DNA of 64,000 nucleotides, taken from contig JACCWM010000036.1 in assembly GCA_013697635.1 (NCBI GenBank), positions 1 through 64,000 on the forward strand, given 5' to 3'. The notes under the pieces were generated by a model. It made no database searches. It was not told the origin of the DNA and saw only the letters and a program-made list of their open reading frames with translations. The DNA is from Lujinxingiaceae bacterium. Lineage in GTDB: Bacteria > Myxococcota_A > Bradymonadia > Bradymonadales > Bradymonadaceae. Positions 2,658 to 31,380 of this stretch are shown here, in pieces. Position 1 is the stretch's first letter. Each line of letters begins with the position of its first letter. Both the position numbers and the translations under genes were made by a program.

Positions 2658-4514
2658 TTAAAAGAAATCTGTCGGACTTGCCAGCCCCTTGATCAGAAAC
2701 TCGTTCAAGAAGCCAGGCAAATAGCCCGTCGCCAGGTGATAACCCTCGACTTTACCCTTCTCGTTGACGCCTGTTTGCTTGTAGCGATAGATGTCTTCGA
2801 TTCGAATGTAGCCGTCGTCGTCGATTCCAACGACCTCGGAGATGTATGTAACACGTCGGCTACCATCGCTAAAGCGGCTCTGCTGAACGATCAGATCGAC
2901 CGAATTTGCGATCTGCTCGCGAATCGCGCGCGAGGGCAACTCCATGCCGCTCATCAAAACCAGCGTCTCCAAACGACTGATCGCCTCGATCGGGCTATTG
3001 GAGTGAACCGTGGTCATCGAACCGTCATGGCCCGTGTTCATGGCCTGGAGCATGTCGAGCGCCTCGCCGCCACGGCACTCTCCGACGACGATCCGATCCG
3101 GTCGCATACGAAGCGCATTCTTGACCAGGTCGCGAATACTGATCTCGCCGCTGCCCTCGAGATTGGGCGGCTTGGTTTCCAGGCTGATCACGTGCTCTTG
3201 ATGAATCTGAAGCTCGGCGGCGTCCTCGATCGTGACCACGCGCTCGGTCTGTCCGATGAAGCTCGACAAGACGTTGAGCAGCGTCGTCTTTCCTGAACCC
3301 GTACCGCCGGAGATGATGATATTCTTTCGCGCACGAACACTGCGCGCCAGAAACTTCGCCATCTCTGGAATGAAGCTGCCGAACTTGACCAGATCATAGG
3401 CCGAGAGCCGGTCTTCAGGAAACTTTCGAATCGTCAGGCAGGGGTCTTTGAGCGCCAGCGGCGGAATGACCGCGTTGACACGCGAGCCGTCGGCCAGACG
3501 GGTGTCGACCAGCGGATTGGACTCGTCAATTCGACGGCCACGCGGAATGACGATGCGCTCGATGACGGTCATCATCGCCTTCTCGTCATTGAAGAACCGG
3601 TCGGTCAGCACGATCTTGCCGCCCAACTCGGCATAGATGTGTTCGCGGTCGACGACCATGATCTCGGTCACCTTGCGATGCTTGACCAAATCTTCAATCG
3701 GACCAAGCCCGCACACCTCATCCATCAGCTCCTTGAAGACCTCATCCTTGGTAAACGGCGGAGGAATGTCGTAGGCGCGCTGTTGAAGCAGCTCCTTGAG
3801 CTTCTCGGAGACCTGGCGCACAACGCGCGGTGAGCTGTAATCCGTGATCTGAAAGCTGTGCAGGTCGAGACGCTCTTTGAGCTCGTCGTGCAACGCGGCC
3901 TTGAAAGCCACCAGACCCATGCGCTTGCTGCGATCAAGGATCTGCACGACCTCGCCGGAAGTATTGACCCGCGGCTCCACGTAATTTTCATTGGGCTCGA
4001 GATCGCCCAAAAAACGCTCGGGCGTAACCGGAGCACTTGGCTTCCAGCTGCGAGCTGGAGCCGCCTGGGCAACCGGCGTAGCCGCCGGCGCACGCCCATG
4101 CACATCGCCCGGCGCGACGGTGCGGCGCATCTCGTCGGCGGTGGACATCGCCCGCGGAGCCGGTGAAGTGGCCGCCGCCCTCGCCTGACTGGGCTGGGCG
4201 CCGGTGCTGCGTGCGCCGTTGCTGGCCATCTCCACACAGAATCGATAAGGCTCGATCGCTGCAAACTCGCCCAGGCGCATCTCGCGCACCCGATCGATGC
4301 GCTCGCCATTGACGAACACACCGTTGGCCGACTGATTGACCAGCAGAATGCGATCGCCCATGACCTTCAAGATGGCATGACGGCGACTCACCGTCTTGCT
4401 GCTCAAGACGATGTCGTTGTTCTGGCTTCGACCAATCGTCACCTCGGCCACCGGTTGATCGATCGGATAGAGGTGTTCATGGCCCAAGTTATCGAGGACC
4501 CGGATCTGTTTCAT
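2658..4514 (-). CDS. cpaF: FHA-CpaF/TadA pilus assembly ATPase
   Basis: The 618-residue protein joins an N-terminal FHA domain (about residues 1-95, core [21 protein letters not shown]) through an Ala/Pro-rich linker to a full CpaF-type secretion ATPase. The ATPase part has Walker [10 protein letters not shown] near residue 401, the Asp-box stretch [20 protein letters not shown] and the His-box region [16 protein letters not shown]. It powers Flp/Tad pilus extrusion from the cytoplasm. Many Tad loci have a CpaE/TadZ gene between cpaC and cpaF. None is present here, and cpaF starts 24 bases after cpaC. The FHA fusion suggests that threonine phosphorylation of a partner places or controls the ATPase, which is inference. 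Confidence 0.93.
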
Positions 4515-4538
4515 AGCTTCACGCGTGTTGTCTCACGA

Positions 4539-5900
4539 TCACTTGCGAGCGTTGGAAAGCTCCGGCAGATCGTCAGGTTGAGCGCCCCGATCGAGCAGGC
4601 CTTGGAAGACGCCTTGAATCAGTGCCTTGTGCGTATCACCGCCGGGCTCATAGACACGTGGCGTCACGAACATCGCGTTGTTCATCTGCTCACCAGAAAA
4701 GGAGCGGTTCTTGAACAGCCAGCCCAAAATCGGAATACTGCCCAGAACCCACAGACCCTGCTCGTTCGATGTGCTTTTGTTGTTGTGCTGGCCGGTCACG
4801 AGCACCGACTGACCCTCGCGCATATTGACCGTAGCCTTGATATCGTTGTTACGAATACCGGGCAGGTTGCCAACACCAGCGCCAAAGTCCAACTCGGAGT
4901 AGCTCATGTCGATGTTGAGCTTGACGCGGTTCTCAAAGTCCAGAATCGGCTGCACTTTGACCTTCAGGCCAAACTCCTTCTCGGCGATGCCGGTGGTGTT
5001 GGCCGTGGCGACCGGAATCAGCAACGTGCCACCGGTATGGTAGGTCGCGTCGGTGCCGGCCTCGGTGACGATCGTGGCATGCTGGACGGTCTTGATCAAA
5101 CCGTTGACCACCAGAAAGTCCAGAGCCATGTTCAAGTTGCCGACCAACGACCAGTAGGAGTTCAAGCCGGCGCCGCCCGTCAACGCCGCCGGACGTGGCA
5201 GCGATGTCCCACCGCCCTGACCAACGCCCACACCAGGAGCAAGCTCGCCGGTGTTGTAGTAGAGCGGTACGTCACCGCTGCCGAAGGTGAAGTTGGAGCC
5301 AAAGAATTGACCCCACTTCACACCGAGGTTGTCACGACCGGTGTTGGCGATCTGAATGAAATAGACGTCGAGCGCAACCATGCGAGCGCCTTCGACGAAG
5401 GCCTCGCGATAGTTGGCGAAGTTGAGCACCTGGTTGGGGTAGAGCTGCGTGAGACGATCGATCTTACGCTTGTACAGCTCGCTTGCAACTTCGCCCTCGA
5501 GCAACACGCGGCCCTTGACGACGCGAACGTCGACGCCGGAGCGCTCCCCGAGAACCTCGCGAACTTCTTCGGCAAGCGACATCGGATTGACGCCGACCAC
5601 GCGCACCAACAAGGTCTTTTGTCCTTCACCCGAAAAGATGTTGATCGTGGTCACGCCCGGCGCCTTGGCCGTCATGATCAAGAGGCGCCCGTCACTGCTC
5701 GTCTGAGCATCGGCCACTTCGGGAAGACCAATGGTCACGCGGGTCAAACCGCGTGCATTGAAGGTCATCGTCTCGCCGATGGCCATGGTAAATTCTTGGT
5801 CCGGCGCCTGAGCGTGAGCCGCTTGAGGGAACATCACCACAACAGGACCGACGACGGCGAACGCAAACAACAAAAGCCCACAACCTACTACACTTCTCAT
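4539..5900 (-). CDS. cpaC: Tad pilus outer-membrane secretin CpaC/RcpA
   Basis: This 453-residue secretin forms the outer-membrane pore of the Tad pilus. It has a signal peptide ending AAHAQA at about residue 32, then a pilus-type N-terminal domain (FTMAIGETMTFNARGLTRVTIG), a BON-like middle region (VREVLGERSGVDVRVVKGRVLLEGEV), and the secretin C-domain with VKVQPILDFENRVKLNIDMSYSELD and the late VTGQHNNKST and LGSIPILGWLF motifs. The ATG start has AAGGAG 6-7 bases upstream. It is followed closely by cpaF. Length is normal for the family. Confidence 0.93.
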   Translation of the reverse strand: MRSVVGCGLLLFAFAVVGPVVVMFPQAAHAQAPDQEFTMAIGETMTFNARGLTRVTIGLPEVADAQTSSDGRLLIMTAKAPGVTTINIFSGEGQKTLLVRVVGVNPMSLAEEVREVLGERSGVDVRVVKGRVLLEGEVASELYKRKIDRLTQLYPNQVLNFANYREAFVEGARMVALDVYFIQIANTGRDNLGVKWGQFFGSNFTFGSGDVPLYYNTGELAPGVGVGQGGGTSLPRPAALTGGAGLNSYWSLVGNLNMALDFLVVNGLIKTVQHATIVTEAGTDATYHTGGTLLIPVATANTTGIAEKEFGLKVKVQPILDFENRVKLNIDMSYSELDFGAGVGNLPGIRNNDIKATVNMREGQSVLVTGQHNNKSTSNEQGLWVLGSIPILGWLFKNRSFSGEQMNNAMFVTPRVYEPGGDTHKALIQGVFQGLLDRGAQPDDLPELSNARK

Positions 5901-19457: not shown

Positions 19458-20975
19458 ATGAGCAGCCAGACCATGTCTTCCCCCTTGCCATCGGCAGGCA
19501 CCGTCCTTGGAGGGCGCTACCGCCTTATCTCCGATGTCGAGGCCGACCTGGGGTTGAAGCCGGCCCTGGCGATCGATGCACAAACCAACACTTCGGTTGG
19601 CATCACCTTTTTGCCCAGCCCCAACGGCCAGGAGTCTGCGGACCAAACGGCCAAGCATTTTCAAAGTTTTCAGCGCGAGATCCGACGGCTGCTCAAGCTT
19701 AGCGCTCCTCAGGCGCTGGCAATTCATGGCCACGGACAACTCGAGGGTAGCGGGCGCTATCTCGTCTTCGAGTGGGTCGAGGCAGCCAGCACAGCTCAAA
19801 TCATCGCCGAACAAGCACCGATCGAGATCGGGCGCGTGGTGGACATCTGGCGCCAGGCACTGGCCGGACTCGAACATGCTCACGCAGCCAACATCATCCA
19901 CGGCGAACTCGAGCCGGCCGACGTCTTGGTCATCGACGACGGCGACGAGGTCAAGGTCAAGCTCAAGCACTTTCAGCTCAGCGCGCTCGTTGGCTCGGCG
20001 CTGAGCACATCGGGGCGCGATCGGCGCTATTGCTCACCAGAGCAACAAAGTGGTGAGCGGGCCTCGCCACAGAGCGATCTCTATAGTTTGGGGCTTGTCG
20101 TCGTCGGCATGCTTGCCGGCGAGCAAAGCGGTGACCAAGCCCCTGGCGCCCGTGTTGCCGGGCTGGACATCGAACCCGGGCTTCGAGCGCTTCTTGCGGC
20201 CTGCTTGAGCCCGGATCCGAGCCGGCGTCCCTCAACGGCCGCGGAGGCGCTGCGCCTGCTCGAACAGGTTGCCCTTCCCTCGTCTCCTCCAAAGCCGGCT
20301 GGCGCAGTTTCCCAAGAAGGCGACGACTTTGGATCGTCGTCCGATCGCTTAGAGCTCTCCGGGCCTCTGGACTTCGAAGAAGATGCCTTTGGCAGCGCCG
20401 ACGCCCTCGCCGACGACGAGCCGATGCAACTCGAGGGTGCGCTCGACTTCGCAGCAGACGAGTCCATCGACAAACCTGAAGGTCAACCCAGGCCCTCCCC
20501 CTACGCCTCGGTACAGACCGAGCCCAAGGCCTCGCCAACGGTTGAACAAAGTGAGGCGCCGGGGCCGCCCGCGGCAACGCCCGCAGCAAAGCCCGGCAGC
20601 CAGGTTCAAGGCCTTCCCAAGATCACGATCATTTTGGGCGCGCTGGTGGTCATTCTCTCGCTGGTGGCGATCCTCAGCGTCGTCAAGTCCCGCATGGACA
20701 ATCGCGTAGCCTCGGAGAACCTGGAGGCGGCACTCGAGGCCGTCATCCCGCTGCCCGAACTGGTCAACGTCACGATTCGCACCAGGCCGCCCGCGCTTCG
20801 CGTCTGGATCAACGATCGAAGCATCGGCTTGAGCCCGGTCAAGCTTGAGCTGCGGGTCGATGAGTTTCCGGCAAAGGTGCGCGCACGCCTGGACTCCAAC
20901 ATCGAACTCACGCTCGACGTGGCCGAGCCGCTCGAGGAAATCATGCTCGATTTCTCCGAGCACATGAAGAACTAG
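19458..20975 (+). CDS. Membrane-anchored pseudokinase with PEGA-like domain
   Basis: The 505-residue protein begins with a Ser/Thr-kinase fold (about residues 15-270): LGGRYRLI start, AHAANIIHGELEPADVLV in place of the HRDLKPxN loop, LKHFQLS in place of DFG, YCSPEQQ as the APE motif, and QSDLYSLGLVVVGML. The catalytic HRD Asp is Glu, and the Lys, Asn and DFG Asp are absent, so it should not phosphorylate. An acidic linker leads to a membrane helix (about 390-412, ITIILGALVVILSLVAILSVV) and a C-terminal PEGA-like periplasmic domain (TIRTRPPALRVWINDRSIGLSPVKLELR). The start is ATG 19458 by fit; 19470 is also possible. It probably works as a scaffold or sensor. Confidence 0.85.
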   Translation: MSSQTMSSPLPSAGTVLGGRYRLISDVEADLGLKPALAIDAQTNTSVGITFLPSPNGQESADQTAKHFQSFQREIRRLLKLSAPQALAIHGHGQLEGSGRYLVFEWVEAASTAQIIAEQAPIEIGRVVDIWRQALAGLEHAHAANIIHGELEPADVLVIDDGDEVKVKLKHFQLSALVGSALSTSGRDRRYCSPEQQSGERASPQSDLYSLGLVVVGMLAGEQSGDQAPGARVAGLDIEPGLRALLAACLSPDPSRRPSTAAEALRLLEQVALPSSPPKPAGAVSQEGDDFGSSSDRLELSGPLDFEEDAFGSADALADDEPMQLEGALDFAADESIDKPEGQPRPSPYASVQTEPKASPTVEQSEAPGPPAATPAAKPGSQVQGLPKITIILGALVVILSLVAILSVVKSRMDNRVASENLEAALEAVIPLPELVNVTIRTRPPALRVWINDRSIGLSPVKLELRVDEFPAKVRARLDSNIELTLDVAEPLEEIMLDFSEHMKN

Positions 20976-22286: not shown

Positions 22287-23180
22287 ATGAACGAGATTGT
22301 CGTAGGCGTTGATTTCTCCGAATCGGCCGCCGATGCCGCGCGCTTTGCGCATGCCTTTGGCCGACGCCTTGGCCTGGACAAGGTGCTGGCCGTTCACGTG
22401 ATCAATCACGAGGAGCTCGTGCTTCGCCGGGTGGTTTCGGGCCTCGATGACCACGCTGAGCTCGAACGCCTGCGCGTCGAAGTCGCCTCCTGGCTCGAGG
22501 CGGCTACGGGCTCGAACGTCTTTGAAGTGCACATCGGCCAGGGCAACGCCAGTCAGGTGCTCAGCGGCGTTGCCAGCGAGCGCAGCGCCTCGCTGCTCGT
22601 GGTTGCTCAAACCGGCAAGGGCGCCTTTGGCAAGGCCGTCTTGGGCTCGACGGCAAGCCGACTGGCCCATCGGCCGCCCTGCCCGATGATCATCAAACAC
22701 CCGGGCAGCTTTGATGCCCTCGATGCGCCGCACATGATGGCCGCGCTCGACTTCTCGAACCCGAGCCGTCAGGCCGCGCGCCAGGCGGCCGCCCTCTCGC
22801 GCACACTGGGCGGCAGGCTTCACCTGCTCCATGTCATCAACCTGCCCTCGCTGGTGCCCACCGGCGGCGACGCCCAACTGATTCCACAGACGATGGCCGA
22901 ACACATCGGCCAAGCCACGGACTGGGCACGCGAGCAGCTCGAGGAGCTGGTCGTCTCCGAGATCGAGAGCCACGGAAAGCTCGACGTTCAGCTCGAAATC
23001 TCGACGGGCTACCCCACCCAAGAGATCGTGCACGTCGCCCGCGAGGAGATGGTCGATCTGCTCGTCGTCGGCTGCAGCGGCCGCTCGGCCATGGCCGACT
23101 TTCTGATGGGAAGTGTCGCCATGGGCGTCGTCAAACACATGCCGTGCACGCTTTTATTGACGCCCGAGAGCAAAGAGTAA
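22287..23180 (+). CDS. Tandem universal stress protein
   Basis: The 297-residue protein has two Usp domains (about 1-140 and 148-297). The first begins NEIVVGVDFSESAADAARFAHAFG and carries an ATP-binding loop TGKGAFGKAVLGSTASRLAHRPPCPMII; the second begins HMMAALDFSNPSRQAARQAAAL and carries GCSGRSAMADFLMGSVAMGVVKHMPCTLLL. Both loops fit the Gly-x2-Gly-x9-Gly-Ser pattern of ATP-binding members. ATG 22287 has GGAG 6 bases upstream. It stands alone, 100 bases ahead of the nuclease-helicase operon. Role in stress is inferred from the family. Confidence 0.92.
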   Translation: MNEIVVGVDFSESAADAARFAHAFGRRLGLDKVLAVHVINHEELVLRRVVSGLDDHAELERLRVEVASWLEAATGSNVFEVHIGQGNASQVLSGVASERSASLLVVAQTGKGAFGKAVLGSTASRLAHRPPCPMIIKHPGSFDALDAPHMMAALDFSNPSRQAARQAAALSRTLGGRLHLLHVINLPSLVPTGGDAQLIPQTMAEHIGQATDWAREQLEELVVSEIESHGKLDVQLEISTGYPTQEIVHVAREEMVDLLVVGCSGRSAMADFLMGSVAMGVVKHMPCTLLLTPESKE

Positions 23181-23282: not shown

Positions 23283-26200
23283 ATGTCTTTTGTTTTCGCG
23301 CCGCCGGCCGAGATCGCGTCGCTCGAGCCCAGTTTTTTGCCGCCCTCGGGCCCCGTGTGGATTCTCGACCCCGGCCAACAGAGCGGCGGCGCCTCGGCCT
23401 CGCGCCCGATTTTGCTTCGCCGCTATGAGGGCTTGACGAGCGTGTTGGCGCTCTCGGCCGTGCTGCGGCGCGCGGCCGGCGCCCATCAATCGCGCCTGTT
23501 TGCTCCGTGCGCGTGGGGCACGAGCGAGGGCGTCTTTTGGACGGCGACTCCCGTGCCCGGCGGAAAGCCATTGATGAGCACGGACTTGTCGCGCTTGCCC
23601 TGGCAGCAGGCCGTAAGCCTGTGGCGCCCGCTGGCCGAGGCCGTGCGCGCAGCCCACGGCCGCGGCGTCGTTCACGGCCTGCTCAGCCCTTGGAACGTCT
23701 GGTACGACGACACGATTGAAAAGCTAACCGGCGTCGATCTCGGCTGCTGGCCTGGCGAGCGTTTGGGCCAGGACGTCCATTGGCCAGCCGAGATGCAGGG
23801 CCTGGCCTCGGCGCGCCAGCCCACACCGGCGACCGATGTCTACGGGCTCGCTCGCTTGCTGATCTGGCTTGCCCTTCCTGCAGAGGCGATGCGCGCGACC
23901 CCCAACTTCTCGGGCATTCCAGCCTTTGCGATTCCGACCCTCGAGCGTGCGATCTGCCAGGATCCTGGCCGGCGTCCGCAGCGTGTCGACGAGCTGATCG
24001 ATGCCACGAGCTTTGCGTCCTCGATCCGAGAGGGTTCCGACCATGCGGGCGACGAGCCGAGCGACGAGCGCCGCGCCGACGTGCTTTTTCGTCGCGTGCA
24101 CGGCCGCGAGACAATCGAGAACAAGCGCTTTGGCCCCGGCCTGCGCTTCCATCTGGGCCCGGCCAACGAAGCCCCGGCCAACGAAGCCGAAAGTACTGGT
24201 GTCTTCTTCTACGAGGGCGTCGATCGCGATGTTTACCACAGCGTTCGCTGGGCCTGGGAGGGCGCGCTGATCAACCTTTTTGACGCCGGCGTGGTCGAGG
24301 ACTCGACCAAACGACGGTTCTTGACCAGCCACGCGCGCTGTTTGCCTGTCGTCGAGCCGTATTGGCCGGTCAGCGTCACCGACGTGCTCACCGCCGAGCA
24401 CTGCACGAGCCGCGTGCTCGTCGACCAACGCGAAGCCGGCGCGCCGGGCCGCGCCCTCGTCTTCGGATCGCTCGTGCACGGCCTGCTCGAAGATCTGAGC
24501 TCGGCCAGCCCGCCCACGCTCGACGAAGCGCTCGAGGCGCGGCTGCCCTTGCTTCGCATCGATATGCTCGCCAGCGGCCTGGGCGACGACGACCTGCCCG
24601 CGCTCGTGCTCGATGCGCACAAACACTTTGAGAACTTGGTGAAGTTTAGCGCCGCCGGCGGTCGCAACGACGCGCTCAGCCGTGTGGGCTGGAGCGGGCG
24701 CCACGCCGAGGCGACACGCTACTCGGCGATGTTCGGCCTGGAGGGACGCATCGATCTGGTGACCGAAGACGAACACGACGGCCTGCAGATCATCGAGCTC
24801 AAGACCGGAAAGCCCTGGGACGGACACTTGAGCCAGGTGCGCTGCTATACGCTGCTCTGGGGTGGGCTGGCCCGCCAAAGCGGCGTCGCCATGAGCGGTC
24901 ATGTGCTTTATTCGGCCAATGGGCGCATGGAGACCATCGCGCTCGAGGACACCGCACGGGAGCGGCGCATCTTGCGCGCTCGAAACGAGCTCGTCGCCTG
25001 TCATCGAAGCCACGTCGACCCGAGCATCGGCTACAAAGCCCCCCACTTCATGGAGCACCCCAGACAATGCAACGCTGCGCCGTGCCGGTGGCGAAAAGAT
25101 CGCTGTCAGGAGCAAACGGCGATGCTCGGGCTCAACCCGAGTGCACGCGCCGATCAGAGCACCGGCCCGGGCAGTCCCTGGCAAGGCTGGGAGCCCTCGC
25201 TTGTGAGCCGTGCCTGGGCCTACCACGCCCACTTCAATCGCCTGATCGGCATGGAACGCTGGGCGGAGAACGCCGCGCTTGGCCTGATCCTGCAAAGCCA
25301 ACGGCTCGCGGAGCGCGTGGCCAATCGCAGCGCGCTCGCTGATTTGCGCGTCGTTGAGGTCGACAGCGAGGCCGGCCGGCTCAGCTTGAGCGGGCGCGCC
25401 ACGCGGCTGTTCTCACCAGGCGACTTCGTGCTCGCACACCGCGGCGATATCGACACCGGCCACGTCGTCAAAGGCGTTGTCGTCTCGACCACTGGCGAGG
25501 GCATCGTCGTACGCAGTCAAAGCGCGGCGATCGCCGCCACGCTGCCCCAGGATGGCTGGATTCTCGACGCGCTGCCCGCGCGCATGGGCCATCGCAGCGC
25601 GCTGCAGGCGCTGTATGGCGCGATCAAGCACCGCGATCGAGCGCGCGCCCAGGTCTTGCTCGATCCTCAATCGCTCGCTGCGCGCGAGGCCATGGCCTTT
25701 GAGCCCACGCAGCCCTTTGCGCTGCTCGAAGACTCCGAGCGCGCGCTCAATACCACGCAACGCCTGGCCGTAGCGCGTGCCCTTGGCGCGCCCGTTGGCA
25801 CGCTGATCCAGGGACCGCCGGGCACCGGAAAGACCACGGTCATCGCCCATCTCGTGCGCGAGCTCGTCGCCCGCGGCCAGCGCGTGGTGCTGTGCGCGCT
25901 CACAAACACGGCCGTCGACACGATGCTCGCCAAGCTGCTCGATGCCGGACACCGCGACTTCGTGCGCGTGGGCTCCAGCGGGCGCTGTCGCGAGTTGAGT
26001 GACAAGTTGCGCGCCCAGGGACTCGCGCCGCGCGACTTCTTCAGCGACGATCTGGCCCAGGCCAACAGCTCGCTTGGCAGTCTGAGCCAGGCCTTGCTCG
26101 ACACCATGGTCATCGGCTGCACGGCCCACGGATCGGTGGGCGCCTCGGTGATCAAGTTTCTCTGCCACAAGCGCGGCGCCCAGCCCTTTGACGTGGCCAT

Positions 26201-27119
26201 CGTCGACGAAGCCGGCCAGCTCACCGAGCCCATGACGCTGGGACCGCTCAACCTGGCGCGTCGCTTCGTGCTGGTGGGCGACCATCGCCAGCTTCCCCCG
26301 ATCGTCGAAAACGAGCAGGCACAGTCGGTGTTCATCGAAGGCTTTGCCAGCCTTGACGCGCCCGAGGACGATCTCGCGCTGGTTGATGAGCCCGGACAAC
26401 TCTCACTGTTGGCCCAGCAATCCGCCTCCCAAGTTTCAGCGGTGCTCGACGGCGCGGGCGTTGGCGGCCTCGATCGCAGCCTCTTTGAGCGGCTAGTCGA
26501 GCGGCTTCCCTTTGTCATGCTCGAGGAGCAGTACCGCATGAACGAGGCGATCATGGCTTTCTCCAATGCTGCCTTCTACGGCGACCGGCTGCGCGCCCAT
26601 GAATCGGTGGCCACACAAGCGCTCGATATCGCCGCGACGAAGCTGGGAGCGATCACCGCGCCCGAGCACGCCGTGGTCTTTGTCAACGTCGACGCAAGCG
26701 ACGATGGACGCACCAACCTGGCCGAGGCTCAGGCGCTCGTCGAAACACTAATATGTCTTGGCCAGGCCGCACCGGCGGCGACGATCGGGGTGGTCTCGCC
26801 ATTTCGGGCGCAGGCCCACTTGCTGCGCGAGCTGTTGCACACGGCGCTGGGCGAGTCGGCTTTAAAGATCGATGTGGACACGGTTGAGCGTTTTCAGGGA
26901 AGCGAACGCGATGTCATCCTTGTTAGTCTAGTCAAGACCGGGCGCGCCGGTGACTTTCTCAGCGACGAGCGCCGCCTCAATGTGACGTTGACGCGGGCGC
27001 GCAAGAAGTTGATCGTCTTTGGCCATCGGCCCTGCCTCGAGCTTAGCCCGCTTTATCGCCGACTCATCGAGCAGCCCCAAACCTTTATTGTCGACTGGCA
27101 ATCCTCGGCCCATGATTAA
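23283..27119 (+). CDS. Dna2-like nuclease-helicase with N-terminal kinase-fold domain
   Basis: The 1278-residue protein has three parts. Residues about 25-250 look like a kinase-fold lobe: AHGRGVVHGLLSPWNVWYD replaces the HRDLKPxN loop (Asp is Leu), followed by VDLGCW, PATDVYGLARLLIWL and DPGRRPQRVDEL. Residues about 365-615 are a RecB/Dna2-type PD-(D/E)xK nuclease: GSLVHGLLED His motif, IDLVTEDEHDGLQIIELKTGK near 500, and Cys in AEHC (about 373) plus C-x4-C-x6-C (about 596-608), fitting an iron-sulfur nuclease. Residues about 820-1270 are an SF1B helicase: QGPPGTGKTT (about 844), DEAGQ, LEEQYRMNE, ERFQGSERDVI and NVTLTRARKK. ATG 23283 is chosen; TTG 23265 is possible. It overlaps the next gene. 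Confidence 0.9.
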   Translation: MSFVFAPPAEIASLEPSFLPPSGPVWILDPGQQSGGASASRPILLRRYEGLTSVLALSAVLRRAAGAHQSRLFAPCAWGTSEGVFWTATPVPGGKPLMSTDLSRLPWQQAVSLWRPLAEAVRAAHGRGVVHGLLSPWNVWYDDTIEKLTGVDLGCWPGERLGQDVHWPAEMQGLASARQPTPATDVYGLARLLIWLALPAEAMRATPNFSGIPAFAIPTLERAICQDPGRRPQRVDELIDATSFASSIREGSDHAGDEPSDERRADVLFRRVHGRETIENKRFGPGLRFHLGPANEAPANEAESTGVFFYEGVDRDVYHSVRWAWEGALINLFDAGVVEDSTKRRFLTSHARCLPVVEPYWPVSVTDVLTAEHCTSRVLVDQREAGAPGRALVFGSLVHGLLEDLSSASPPTLDEALEARLPLLRIDMLASGLGDDDLPALVLDAHKHFENLVKFSAAGGRNDALSRVGWSGRHAEATRYSAMFGLEGRIDLVTEDEHDGLQIIELKTGKPWDGHLSQVRCYTLLWGGLARQSGVAMSGHVLYSANGRMETIALEDTARERRILRARNELVACHRSHVDPSIGYKAPHFMEHPRQCNAAPCRWRKDRCQEQTAMLGLNPSARADQSTGPGSPWQGWEPSLVSRAWAYHAHFNRLIGMERWAENAALGLILQSQRLAERVANRSALADLRVVEVDSEAGRLSLSGRATRLFSPGDFVLAHRGDIDTGHVVKGVVVSTTGEGIVVRSQSAAIAATLPQDGWILDALPARMGHRSALQALYGAIKHRDRARAQVLLDPQSLAAREAMAFEPTQPFALLEDSERALNTTQRLAVARALGAPVGTLIQGPPGTGKTTVIAHLVRELVARGQRVVLCALTNTAVDTMLAKLLDAGHRDFVRVGSSGRCRELSDKLRAQGLAPRDFFSDDLAQANSSLGSLSQALLDTMVIGCTAHGSVGASVIKFLCHKRGAQPFDVAIVDEAGQLTEPMTLGPLNLARRFVLVGDHRQLPPIVENEQAQSVFIEGFASLDAPEDDLALVDEPGQLSLLAQQSASQVSAVLDGAGVGGLDRSLFERLVERLPFVMLEEQYRMNEAIMAFSNAAFYGDRLRAHESVATQALDIAATKLGAITAPEHAVVFVNVDASDDGRTNLAEAQALVETLICLGQAAPAATIGVVSPFRAQAHLLRELLHTALGESALKIDVDTVERFQGSERDVILVSLVKTGRAGDFLSDERRLNVTLTRARKKLIVFGHRPCLELSPLYRRLIEQPQTFIVDWQSSAHD

Positions 27120-28380
27120 ACGCATCTCCCATAGCCGCCCGGTTTCGCGCCGCTTGCAGCGCTTCTTGCAGGCCGGCGCGCTCTTCGGCGTGCTCTCCGG
27201 CGCCTGGGCTTGCGACAGCGATCGCCGCGACAAACCCGCACCCGCTGCCGCCCTGTCGGTGGCCACGGTCATTGAGGCCAAGAGCTGGTCGGCGCCGGTG
27301 GCGATCGACTTGAAGGAGCCCGCAGCCTTTGAACAGCGCATCTTGGATCTGAGCGATTCCCAGGTTCATCCACGCTGCCACGAGGTGTTCGAGCCCGATG
27401 GCGACGTCATCGCGTGGCCCTGGACCGTGGATGCAGGCGCCGAGGCGCAGACGCTCTTTGGCTGTCGCCCGGAGGCCTTCGAGAAGCTGGGCGACGGCCG
27501 ACGCTACGTGGCCTATGGCGTGCCCAGCCCCAAGCACTCACGCGGCTCCGATCTTCGCCTGGTCGCCTACAACGCCAACCGAGAGGTGCGCTTTCACCAT
27601 CGCCTCGACCGCTCCGGCCAGGCCTTGAACTTCGACGCCAACTACCGCGGCGCGTTCATCGCCAGGCCCTCCGAGCGCCTCGCCTGCGCAGGCACGATGT
27701 GGGAGGGCGGCACACAGCTCGCCTGCATCGACGAGACCAGCGGCGAAGAGGCCTGGAGCGGCATGATGCCCTTTTGGTCGGGCATCGAGATCAAGGGCGC
27801 CAACAACAGCCTTTACGGCGCCGACATCAACGGACTGACCCGGCGCTACCCGTTCAGCGGCGTGGAGATGCGCCATCGGCCCTTTGAGGGCCTGGGCGGG
27901 CGCGGCGCCTACTACGGCGCGGACTCGCGCAACATCTACTTTGCGCCCGCAATCGACAAACCCCGGCTCAGCGCCTACGATTTTGACCAGATGAGCCTGC
28001 GCTGGCGCCTCGAGCTACCCGGGCGTCCCACCACCTCCTATCGCTTTATCGACGAGGCCCGAAACCTGCTCGTCTTGCGCATCGAGACCACGCTCTATGG
28101 CATCGACACTGAGCTTGCCACGGTGCGTTGGGCGCTCGAGGTCGGCGTCGATCACCCGCCCATGGCCGCCGGCGACGAGCAACTCTACCTGCTGTTGCGC
28201 CGCGAAGACCGCGCGAATCTGCTCTACGGCATCGATCCCGACAGCGGCAAGGTCAACTGGGTGGCCCCCACACCGACGGGCACGCTCGACCTGGGCTGGC
28301 AGGAGAACACCCTGATGTTGCGAAGCGTGCGTGCCGTGCGCACCGTGCGCTCGAGTCCGGCCAAGGCTGCCTCCAAATGA
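27112..28380 (+). CDS. Lipoprotein with PQQ/WD-like beta-propeller repeats
   Basis: The start is ATG 27112, inside the end of the helicase gene (8-base overlap), giving 422 residues. The N-terminus is a signal with Arg-rich start, hydrophobic stretch and a Cys at LSGAWAC (about residue 24), so lipid attachment is likely. The rest is built of beta-propeller-like repeats with GxxxxxYGxD and LxWxxxL themes, such as IDETSGEEAWSGMMP, SLYGADINGLTRRYPF, LLVLRIETTLYGIDTELATVRWALEV and LLYGIDPDSGKVNWVAPT, which resemble PQQ-type blades. It probably binds a partner at the envelope. Its link to a DNA-acting helicase is unexplained. Confidence 0.8.
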   Translation: MIKRISHSRPVSRRLQRFLQAGALFGVLSGAWACDSDRRDKPAPAAALSVATVIEAKSWSAPVAIDLKEPAAFEQRILDLSDSQVHPRCHEVFEPDGDVIAWPWTVDAGAEAQTLFGCRPEAFEKLGDGRRYVAYGVPSPKHSRGSDLRLVAYNANREVRFHHRLDRSGQALNFDANYRGAFIARPSERLACAGTMWEGGTQLACIDETSGEEAWSGMMPFWSGIEIKGANNSLYGADINGLTRRYPFSGVEMRHRPFEGLGGRGAYYGADSRNIYFAPAIDKPRLSAYDFDQMSLRWRLELPGRPTTSYRFIDEARNLLVLRIETTLYGIDTELATVRWALEVGVDHPPMAAGDEQLYLLLRREDRANLLYGIDPDSGKVNWVAPTPTGTLDLGWQENTLMLRSVRAVRTVRSSPAKAASK

Positions 28381-29573
28381 GCATCGCCCAGGCTCGCCAG
28401 CAAGCCGAGCATCTGTTCAAGGAGGCCGCGGCGATCTACGTCGCTGCCTTCTCGCTGGTCCTGTTGGCCGCGCTGAGCGCGCTCGTGGTGGGTTTTGTCG
28501 CACAGAACCTCTACGCGATCGTGGCCGCCGTCTTTATCGCCCTGCCCCACCTGTGGCTGGCTCGAAAACAGCTCGACCCCAAGACCTTTGGCCTGACCCT
28601 CGACTCCTGGGGGCGCGGCGCGCTCTGGGGCGTTGCGCTCACCCTGCTGACCGTGCCCTTCTTTGGCGCCGGCTACTATCTGTGGGAGACGCGCGTGCTC
28701 GAGCGCAGCTTCGAGCCCGAGATCGACAACCTTCGCAAATGGCCGGCCGATCTCGAAGGCCGCCCGTCGAATTGGGGGCGCGCGCCCGGCGTCTGGATCT
28801 GGTCGAACAACCGCGCGCTGCACATCGCCATCTCCAACGACGCCCCCAACGACGAATACCTCACGGTTGAGGCCGACGCGCCCTTTTACTGGCACACGGT
28901 CGCATCGGCGCGCGCCCATCCGCTCCACGACGACCAGGGCGTGCGCGCCGGCCACCCGTCCGACTTCAAAGTGCGCTCCCGCATGGTGCAAAGTGACGCC
29001 TGGATCGTTGGCCCCGGCGACTCCGGCCTGGCCGCCGAGCTGGTCATCAGCCCCGAGAGCCATGCCGATGAACACGCCGCCTTTCCCGCATCGGTCGTGC
29101 TCGAGGTGAGCGCAAAGGGCACAGCATCGAGTTGGCCGATCTACCTTGGTCCGAGCGCCACGAGCGTCTCCGAGAGCTCGACCACCGTGAAGCGAAGCTA
29201 CATGTGGATCCTGCTCTGGGGGCTCACCCACCTGCTGTTCATCGCCTTACCCGAAGAGTTTTTCTACCGCGGCTATTTGCAAACACGCATCAGCCAGGCG
29301 CTCGAGTTTCGCCGCCTGGCGCGCGGCCAAAGCGCTTTGCCAGGGCGCTTCTTGGGCATCAGCGCGGCCAACATCATCACCAGCTTGCTCTTCGCCATTG
29401 GCCACGTGCTCATACCGGTGGGCGGCGCGCTGATCTTGAGCCGCGCTGCCGTCTTCTTTCCCTCATTGCTCTTTGGCTGGCTGCGCGAGCGCACCGGCAC
29501 GATTGTTGCGCCCGTGATCTTCCACGCAAGCTGCAACATGCTCGTGCTCCTGGCAGCACCCCACTTCTTCTAA
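28377..29573 (+). CDS. CPBP-family intramembrane metalloprotease
   Basis: The 398-residue protein begins at ATG 28377, overlapping the lipoprotein stop by ATGA. It has three N-terminal membrane segments (about 15-105), a soluble beta-rich insert of roughly 180 residues, and a C-terminal CPBP (Abi/CAAX protease-like) domain from about 275. The catalytic motifs are EEFFYRG (about residue 291), FAIGHVL and a late HASCN. This family cuts proteins or peptides inside the membrane; targets include prenylated or sorted proteins. The large insert between the membrane blocks is unusual. Co-translation with the lipoprotein suggests the pair acts together. Confidence 0.87.
   Translation: MSIAQARQQAEHLFKEAAAIYVAAFSLVLLAALSALVVGFVAQNLYAIVAAVFIALPHLWLARKQLDPKTFGLTLDSWGRGALWGVALTLLTVPFFGAGYYLWETRVLERSFEPEIDNLRKWPADLEGRPSNWGRAPGVWIWSNNRALHIAISNDAPNDEYLTVEADAPFYWHTVASARAHPLHDDQGVRAGHPSDFKVRSRMVQSDAWIVGPGDSGLAAELVISPESHADEHAAFPASVVLEVSAKGTASSWPIYLGPSATSVSESSTTVKRSYMWILLWGLTHLLFIALPEEFFYRGYLQTRISQALEFRRLARGQSALPGRFLGISAANIITSLLFAIGHVLIPVGGALILSRAAVFFPSLLFGWLRERTGTIVAPVIFHASCNMLVLLAAPHFF

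Positions 29574-29694: not shown

Positions 29695-31376
<1,682 letters not shown>

Positions 31377-31380
<4 letters not shown>

What the first reader, a model, noticed from the sequence alone, without database searches (positions are those of the whole stretch)
23283..27119. Kinase-fold domain fused to a Dna2-like iron-sulfur nuclease-helicase
The first 250 residues look like a kinase C-lobe with HGLLSPWNV in place of HRDLKPxN, joined to a RecB/Dna2-type nuclease with four Cys and an SF1B helicase. I know of no described protein with this order. The kinase-like part may bind ATP or a phosphorylated partner and switch the nuclease on. The architecture would also suit a defence effector.
Basis: partly seen in the sequence, partly recalled or inferred. 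Interest (0 to 1): 0.82.

Follow-up and report, generated by a model that had tools for sequence, protein, structure and literature searches.

The report
Dna2-like nuclease-helicase with dead kinase
The gene encodes a bacterial relative of the DNA-repair enzyme Dna2 that carries a protein-kinase domain which has lost its catalytic residues; more distant relatives carry the same fusion with an intact-looking kinase, and the gene passes down with the chromosome like an ordinary cellular gene rather than a mobile anti-phage system.

Summary
The 1278-aa protein (23283-27119, +) is an N-terminal protein-kinase fold (AlphaFold pLDDT 90; every listed Foldseek hit is a kinase), then a Dna2-type Fe-S PD-(D/E)XK nuclease and SF1B helicase collinear with mouse Dna2 (profile E 3e-107; model TM 0.71). 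It is not undescribed: NCBIfam NF040671 "PLuB_AAA" covers it end to end (1578 bits, cut-off 999), and the next two genes are the catalogued PLuB PQQ-repeat protein and myxosortase MrtP. It occurs in 19 of 21 genomes of the family, in fixed synteny and congruent with RpoB, with no plasmid, phage or viral relatives found. Defence effector is therefore the weaker reading. What is new here: the fusion extends beyond the catalogued family, and there the kinase looks intact. A related family of the class carries HRD[LM]KPHN and DFG; a family in the same order keeps beta3 Lys and DFG but has lost the catalytic Asp; the window's family has lost both Lys and Asp. So an active-looking kinase-Dna2 fusion probably decayed into a pseudokinase. 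Best reading: a genome-maintenance nuclease-helicase with a kinase-derived regulatory domain. Biochemistry is untested. RecC is present in the same genome, so it does not replace RecBCD.

The parts
23283..27119 (+). gene for the pseudokinase - Dna2-like Fe-S nuclease - SF1B helicase fusion (1278 aa), NCBIfam NF040671 PLuB_AAA
   Evidence: 1578 bits, cut-off 999, residues 8-1273
23283..24017 (+). residues 1-245: protein-kinase fold, predicted catalytically dead
   Evidence: motif table
23673..23699 (+). HGLLSPWNV (residues 131-139), in place of HRDLKPxN; catalytic Asp position is Leu133
24066..24362 (+). residues 262-360: beta-rich linker before the nuclease
   Evidence: predicted strands; conserved in alignment
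24375..25142 (+). residues 365-620: RecB/Dna2-type PD-(D/E)XK nuclease with four invariant Cys (C374, C596, C601, C608), active site D491, E505, K507
25740..27032 (+). residues 820-1250: SF1B (Upf1/Dna2-type) helicase; Walker A GPPGTGKT 844-851, DEAGQ 975-979
27112..28380 (+). PLuB PQQ-repeat protein (NF040673); its start overlaps the end of the fusion gene by 8 bases
28377..29573 (+). myxosortase MrtP (NF040674); its start overlaps the end of the previous gene by 4 bases
22287..23180 (+). upstream universal-stress-protein gene, conserved neighbour in several genomes of the family

Best explanation
It is a chromosomal, lineage-conserved bacterial Dna2-type enzyme: a helicase that moves on single-stranded DNA and feeds it to an Fe-S-stabilised nuclease, used in genome maintenance (flap, overhang or stalled-fork processing). 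Its N-terminal domain descends from a PknA/PknB-like Ser/Thr kinase. The ancestral fusion was probably an active kinase; in the window's lineage catalysis is lost, and the domain most likely acts as a protein-binding or autoinhibitory module that gates the nuclease-helicase. Shown by sequence and model: the domains, their order, the loss of kinase residues, vertical inheritance. Inferred: enzymatic activity (about 0.85 likely), regulatory role of the pseudokinase (about 0.6), genome maintenance as the biological role (about 0.6).
For: Dna2 collinearity by profile and by fold, better than SMUBP2 or Upf1. Nuclease, Fe-S and helicase residues invariant in 21 relatives. Kinase origin: f3 relatives have a canonical kinase (PknA E 5.6e-32; HRDLKPHN or HRDMKPHN in every f3 locus checked). 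Intermediate state in f2: beta3 Lys and DFG kept, HRD Asp replaced by Gly. In f1 the catalytic Asp is gone in 15/15 and beta3 Lys in 15/15. The kinase-like domain is still under constraint: dN/dS 0.18 and 0.30 in two close pairs, and alpha-F Asp185 invariant. Vertical inheritance: Spearman rho 0.90 against RpoB over 17 genomes and 0.80 within f1, Mantel p 0.0005, with matching clades. Present in 19/21 family genomes. No mobile relatives found. Housekeeping neighbours in f3: PDH E2/E3, OmpA, SLT.
Against: No biochemical or genetic data. Genome G004 (93% complete, same family) lacks the gene, so it is dispensable there. RecC is found in 15 of 16 genomes tested, so the main double-strand-break machinery is present and the specific task is unknown. 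In f1 the gene is co-operonic with a PQQ-repeat protein and a protein-sorting protease, which is not what a repair gene usually sits with. Its closest named kinase-helicase analogue, MkoA, is a defence protein.
Confidence: 0.6

Rival explanations
1. It is an anti-phage defence effector, Mokosh-like: a kinase-fold sensor coupled to a helicase-nuclease that degrades invading nucleic acid.
For: Top PADLOC hit is MkoA (1.1e-83, best stretch on the helicase). MkoA's N-terminal 33-280 is itself a kinase that matches the f3 kinase (1.9e-34), so kinase-SF1 helicase fusions do occur in defence. Mokosh type I is described as helicase, PLD nuclease and STK (PMC11672841).
Against: Near-universal in the family, fixed synteny, RpoB-congruent; no relative found on plasmids, phages or viral contigs; no PLD nuclease among the neighbours scanned; the nuclease fragment gives no MkoA match.
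Confidence: 0.15
2. It works in the surface-protein sorting 'PLuB system' together with the PQQ-repeat protein and myxosortase MrtP, and its helicase-like part has some non-DNA role there.
For: Overlapping gene order AAA-PQQ-MrtP in the window and conserved order in most family genomes examined; NCBI names these PLuB or myxosortase.
Against: In f2 and f3 the fusion gene is on a different contig from MrtP; the PQQ family was not found in 12 f2/f3/f4/f7 genomes (the tool warns that nothing rang in that call, but the same model scored in 20 of 21 f1 genomes); MrtP is widespread in genomes that lack the fusion; all nuclease and helicase residues are kept.
Confidence: 0.12
3. The kinase-like domain still binds a nucleotide by a non-canonical pocket (ULK4/DLHK style) and acts as an ATP-sensing switch.
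For: Arg replaces beta3 Lys in 12 of 15 f1 sequences and DFG Asp is kept in most; arginine-rich ATP binding without the beta3 Lys is proposed for DLHK (PMC12599244).
Against: G-loop degenerate, alpha-C Glu lost, two sequences have Trp at the beta3 site and a shortened activation segment.
Confidence: 0.13

Closest known systems
NCBIfam NF040671 PLuB_AAA (PLuB system helicase-like protein)
   Same: Full-length match far above the curated cut-off; same neighbouring families NF040673 and NF040674.
   Different: The NCBI name mentions neither kinase, nuclease nor Dna2. The f2 and f3 relatives, including those with an intact kinase, score below its cut-off (954 bits at most), so the wider family is not covered.
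Eukaryotic Dna2 nuclease-helicase (PDB 5eaw/5ean/5eax)
   Same: Collinear nuclease, four cysteines, middle part and SF1B helicase over nearly the whole length; catalytic and helicase motifs kept.
   Different: Kinase-fold domain at the N-terminus; cysteine spacing C-x4-C-x6-C instead of C-x2-C-x5-C.
Mokosh type I MkoA (anti-phage)
   Same: N-terminal Ser/Thr kinase joined to an SF1 COG1112-type helicase.
   Different: No Dna2-type nuclease matched; Mokosh has a separate PLD nuclease; here no PLD neighbour seen and vertical inheritance.
DLHK bacterial pseudokinases (PMC12599244)
   Same: Kinase-fold domains linked to DEAD-like helicase or DNA2 domains in bacteria, no beta3 Lys.
   Different: DLHK keeps the HRD Asp and degrades ATP/DFG motifs; here the HRD Asp is lost while DFG Asp is mostly kept.

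Membership tests
NCBIfam NF040671 PLuB_AAA | score above curated cut-off 999 over the full model | tested here: met
   1578 bits, protein 8-1273, model 1-1256
Dna2-type nuclease-helicase | PD-(D/E)XK nuclease (D, ExK, QxxxY) followed by SF1B helicase, collinear with Dna2 | tested here: met
Dna2-type nuclease-helicase | four cysteines for a 4Fe-4S cluster flanking the nuclease | tested here: met
   C374, C596, C601, C608 invariant in 21 sequences; the cluster itself not testable here
Dna2-type nuclease-helicase | flap/ssDNA nuclease and 5'-3' helicase activity | not testable with these tools
   needs purified protein
Protein kinase fold | bilobal kinase fold | tested here: met
Active Ser/Thr protein kinase | beta3 Lys, HRD Asp, DFG Asp, G-loop | tested here: not met
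   window: Arg46, Leu133, degenerate G-loop; only the DFG Asp152 remains. Met in f3 relatives.
DLHK pseudokinase | retained HRD Asp with degraded ATP and DFG motifs | tested here: not met
   HRD Asp is Leu in the window and absent in all f1 and f2
Mokosh type I (MkoA/MkoB) | MkoA full-length match and an adjacent PLD nuclease | tested here: not met
   the best MkoA stretch in the window protein covers only the C-terminal half (profile 533-1080 of 1112); no PLD among scanned neighbours
Defence island gene | patchy distribution, mobile context | tested here: not met

The most novel reading that the evidence does not exclude
In the related family f3 the protein is a self-contained DNA-damage kinase-nuclease: an active Ser/Thr kinase on the same chain as Dna2 is switched by DNA engagement and phosphorylates itself or repair partners, a bacterial counterpart of kinase control of Dna2. 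The window's lineage then converted that kinase into a non-catalytic regulator.
Probability: 0.15. Interest if true: 0.75.

Novelty: new variant of a known kind. Interest (0 to 1): 0.47.

Why it matters
It gives one orthologous, vertically inherited protein in which the same kinase domain is intact in one family, half-decayed in a second and catalytically dead in a third, while the attached nuclease-helicase keeps all its motifs. That is a natural series for asking what a pseudokinase does for the enzyme it is fused to, and whether bacteria regulate a Dna2-type enzyme by a built-in kinase. It also puts a domain identity on NCBI's 'PLuB helicase-like' family and shows that the fusion is not tied to the PLuB gene set outside one family.

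Tried and rejected
Pfam on residues 1-280 alone: no hit; the kinase needed profile and fold evidence. Defence island or mobile origin: tblastn in plasmids and phages and a viral-contig scan found nothing. Replacement of RecBCD: rejected, since RecC family PF04257 is present in 15 of 16 genomes including the window's. Obligate PLuB gene set: not supported outside f1. A first RpoB comparison gave no correlation because antisense ORFs had been picked for four genomes; corrected. G205 (L097): helicase part of a possible distant relative, cut by the contig end and on a long branch, so left undecided. The genome-contig scan used a single 10-residue nuclease pattern, so absence in other phyla is not proven. 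The Haft myxosortase paper that probably introduced MrtP is not in the library, and no held paper mentions 'PLuB system'. The f2+f3 grouping has weak support and differs; the order of catalytic losses follows the given taxonomy and the assumption that lost kinase residues are not regained.

Full report
Check of the observation. The ORF is real and uninterrupted, ATG at 23283, stop at 27119, 1278 residues. Pfam recognises the PD-(D/E)XK nuclease and the SF1 helicase and nothing in residues 1-280. Three tests show that residues 1-245 are a protein-kinase fold: AlphaFold with 20 sequences gives mean pLDDT 90.1 and pTM 0.87; every one of the 50 listed Foldseek hits in the PDB is a protein kinase, best E 1.3e-10; and a profile built only from the 15 sequences of the window's own family finds kinases, with PknG best at 3.5e-10.

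The rest of the protein is Dna2-like. A profile of residues 262-1278 matches mouse Dna2 over profile positions 82-972 at 3.2e-107, ahead of SMUBP-2 (1.9e-77) and Upf1 (2.5e-72). The model of this part (pLDDT 87.9, pTM 0.88) has Dna2 as its best fold at 5e-50, TM 0.71. Nuclease residues D491, E505 and K507, four cysteines (C374, C596, C601, C608) and Walker A are kept in all relatives aligned; in the printed alignment to mouse Dna2 the nuclease and helicase motifs coincide, while the cysteine spacing differs.

It is catalogued. NCBIfam NF040671 'PLuB_AAA, PLuB system helicase-like protein' matches residues 8-1273 with 1578 bits against a cut-off of 999. The next genes are NF040673 (PLuB PQQ-repeat protein, 622 bits) and NF040674 (myxosortase MrtP, 426 bits). 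The gene ends overlap by 8 and 4 bases, as in an operon. 'PLuB' probably stands for Persicimonas, Lujinxingia and Bradymonas; this is my inference. Genome G002 has exactly the published length of B. sediminis FA350 (5,045,683 bp), and G013 differs by 100 bp from the published length of P. caeni. No held paper explains the name. Here f1 is the window's family (apparently Bradymonadales), f2 another family of the same order, f3 a family of the same class.

Distribution. f1: 19 of 21 genomes at E <= 1e-20. f2: 3 of 5. f3: all 6. Families f4 to f7 of the class: only a helicase-only hit. A scan of a collection of 84,980 species found 17 loci, all in MAGs of the same broad group where named and many identical in contig length to those already found, but it rested on one short motif, so rarer occurrences elsewhere are not excluded. 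No plasmid, phage or viral relative was found. Protein distances follow RpoB distances (rho 0.90 over 17 genomes, 0.80 within f1, p 0.0005), with matching clades. In f1 the order Usp - fusion - PQQ - MrtP recurs; in f3 the gene lies beside pyruvate dehydrogenase E2/E3, OmpA and lytic transglycosylase genes, and in f2 near an XPB-type helicase. This is the behaviour of a resident chromosomal gene. Genome G004 lacks it, so it is not essential everywhere.

History of the kinase. In f3 the domain is a canonical kinase: GxGxxG, beta3 Lys, alpha-C Glu, HRDLKPHN (HRDMKPHN in one), DFG, APE; PknA is its best PDB match at 5.6e-32. In f2 the beta3 Lys and DFG remain but the catalytic Asp is Gly in 3 of 3. 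In f1 the catalytic Asp and the beta3 Lys are gone in 15 of 15, while the structural alpha-F Asp (185) is invariant and HRD His and alpha-I Arg are nearly so. The domain diverges faster than the nuclease and helicase (mean f1 identity 0.39 against 0.54) but dN/dS is 0.18 and 0.30 in the two pairs close enough to measure, so it is still under constraint. Loss from an active ancestor is the simplest reading, because regaining the full catalytic set is improbable; the weakly supported branch order of f1, f2 and f3 leaves open whether the Asp was lost once or twice.

Relation to known systems. Mokosh MkoA is also a kinase-SF1 helicase fusion: its profile positions 33-280 match the f3 kinase at 1.9e-34 and its C-terminal half matches the helicase. 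It gave no match to the nuclease part, and no PLD nuclease partner was seen among the neighbours scanned. DLHK pseudokinases are reported linked to DEAD-like helicase and DNA2 domains (PMC12599244), but keep the HRD Asp that is lost here. So kinase-helicase fusions are known; the Dna2-type nuclease between the two, and the graded loss of the kinase, are what differ.

How it probably works. By homology with Dna2, single-stranded DNA is threaded through the nuclease and pulled by the helicase; this is not tested here. Because the catalytic residues are gone but the fold is kept, I favour a gating or partner-binding role for the N-terminal domain. RecC is present in 15 of 16 genomes examined, so the protein is an accessory to, not a substitute for, RecBCD. 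The link to the myxosortase genes is limited to f1: MrtP matches 274 of 379 genomes at a loose threshold (59 over cut-off), including many without the fusion, and the PQQ family was found in 20 of 21 f1 genomes and none of 12 others.

Noticed in passing
window 19458-20975 (+): A second kinase-fold protein with a degenerate catalytic loop (HGELEPADV) lies upstream; Pfam Pkinase 6e-21. Homologues recur near the fusion locus in several family genomes.
   Followed up: partly
window 29695-31380 (+): Protein with long HDHD and NENVN-type low-complexity repeats; no confident family match.
   Followed up: no
L090 (G004): Genome of the same family keeps MrtP but lacks both the fusion gene and the PQQ-repeat gene.
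   Followed up: partly
L097 (G205), 3781-5310 minus strand: Truncated helicase from a distant family of the phylum that scores well above other helicases against the fusion family; its upstream part is off the contig.
   Followed up: partly
L064 and L065: In f2 an ERCC3/XPB-type helicase gene lies a few kilobases from the fusion gene.
   Followed up: no
G009:C35:60328-65370: Open frame of 2281 residues with several PDDEXK_1 matches, unrelated to the fusion locus.
   Followed up: no
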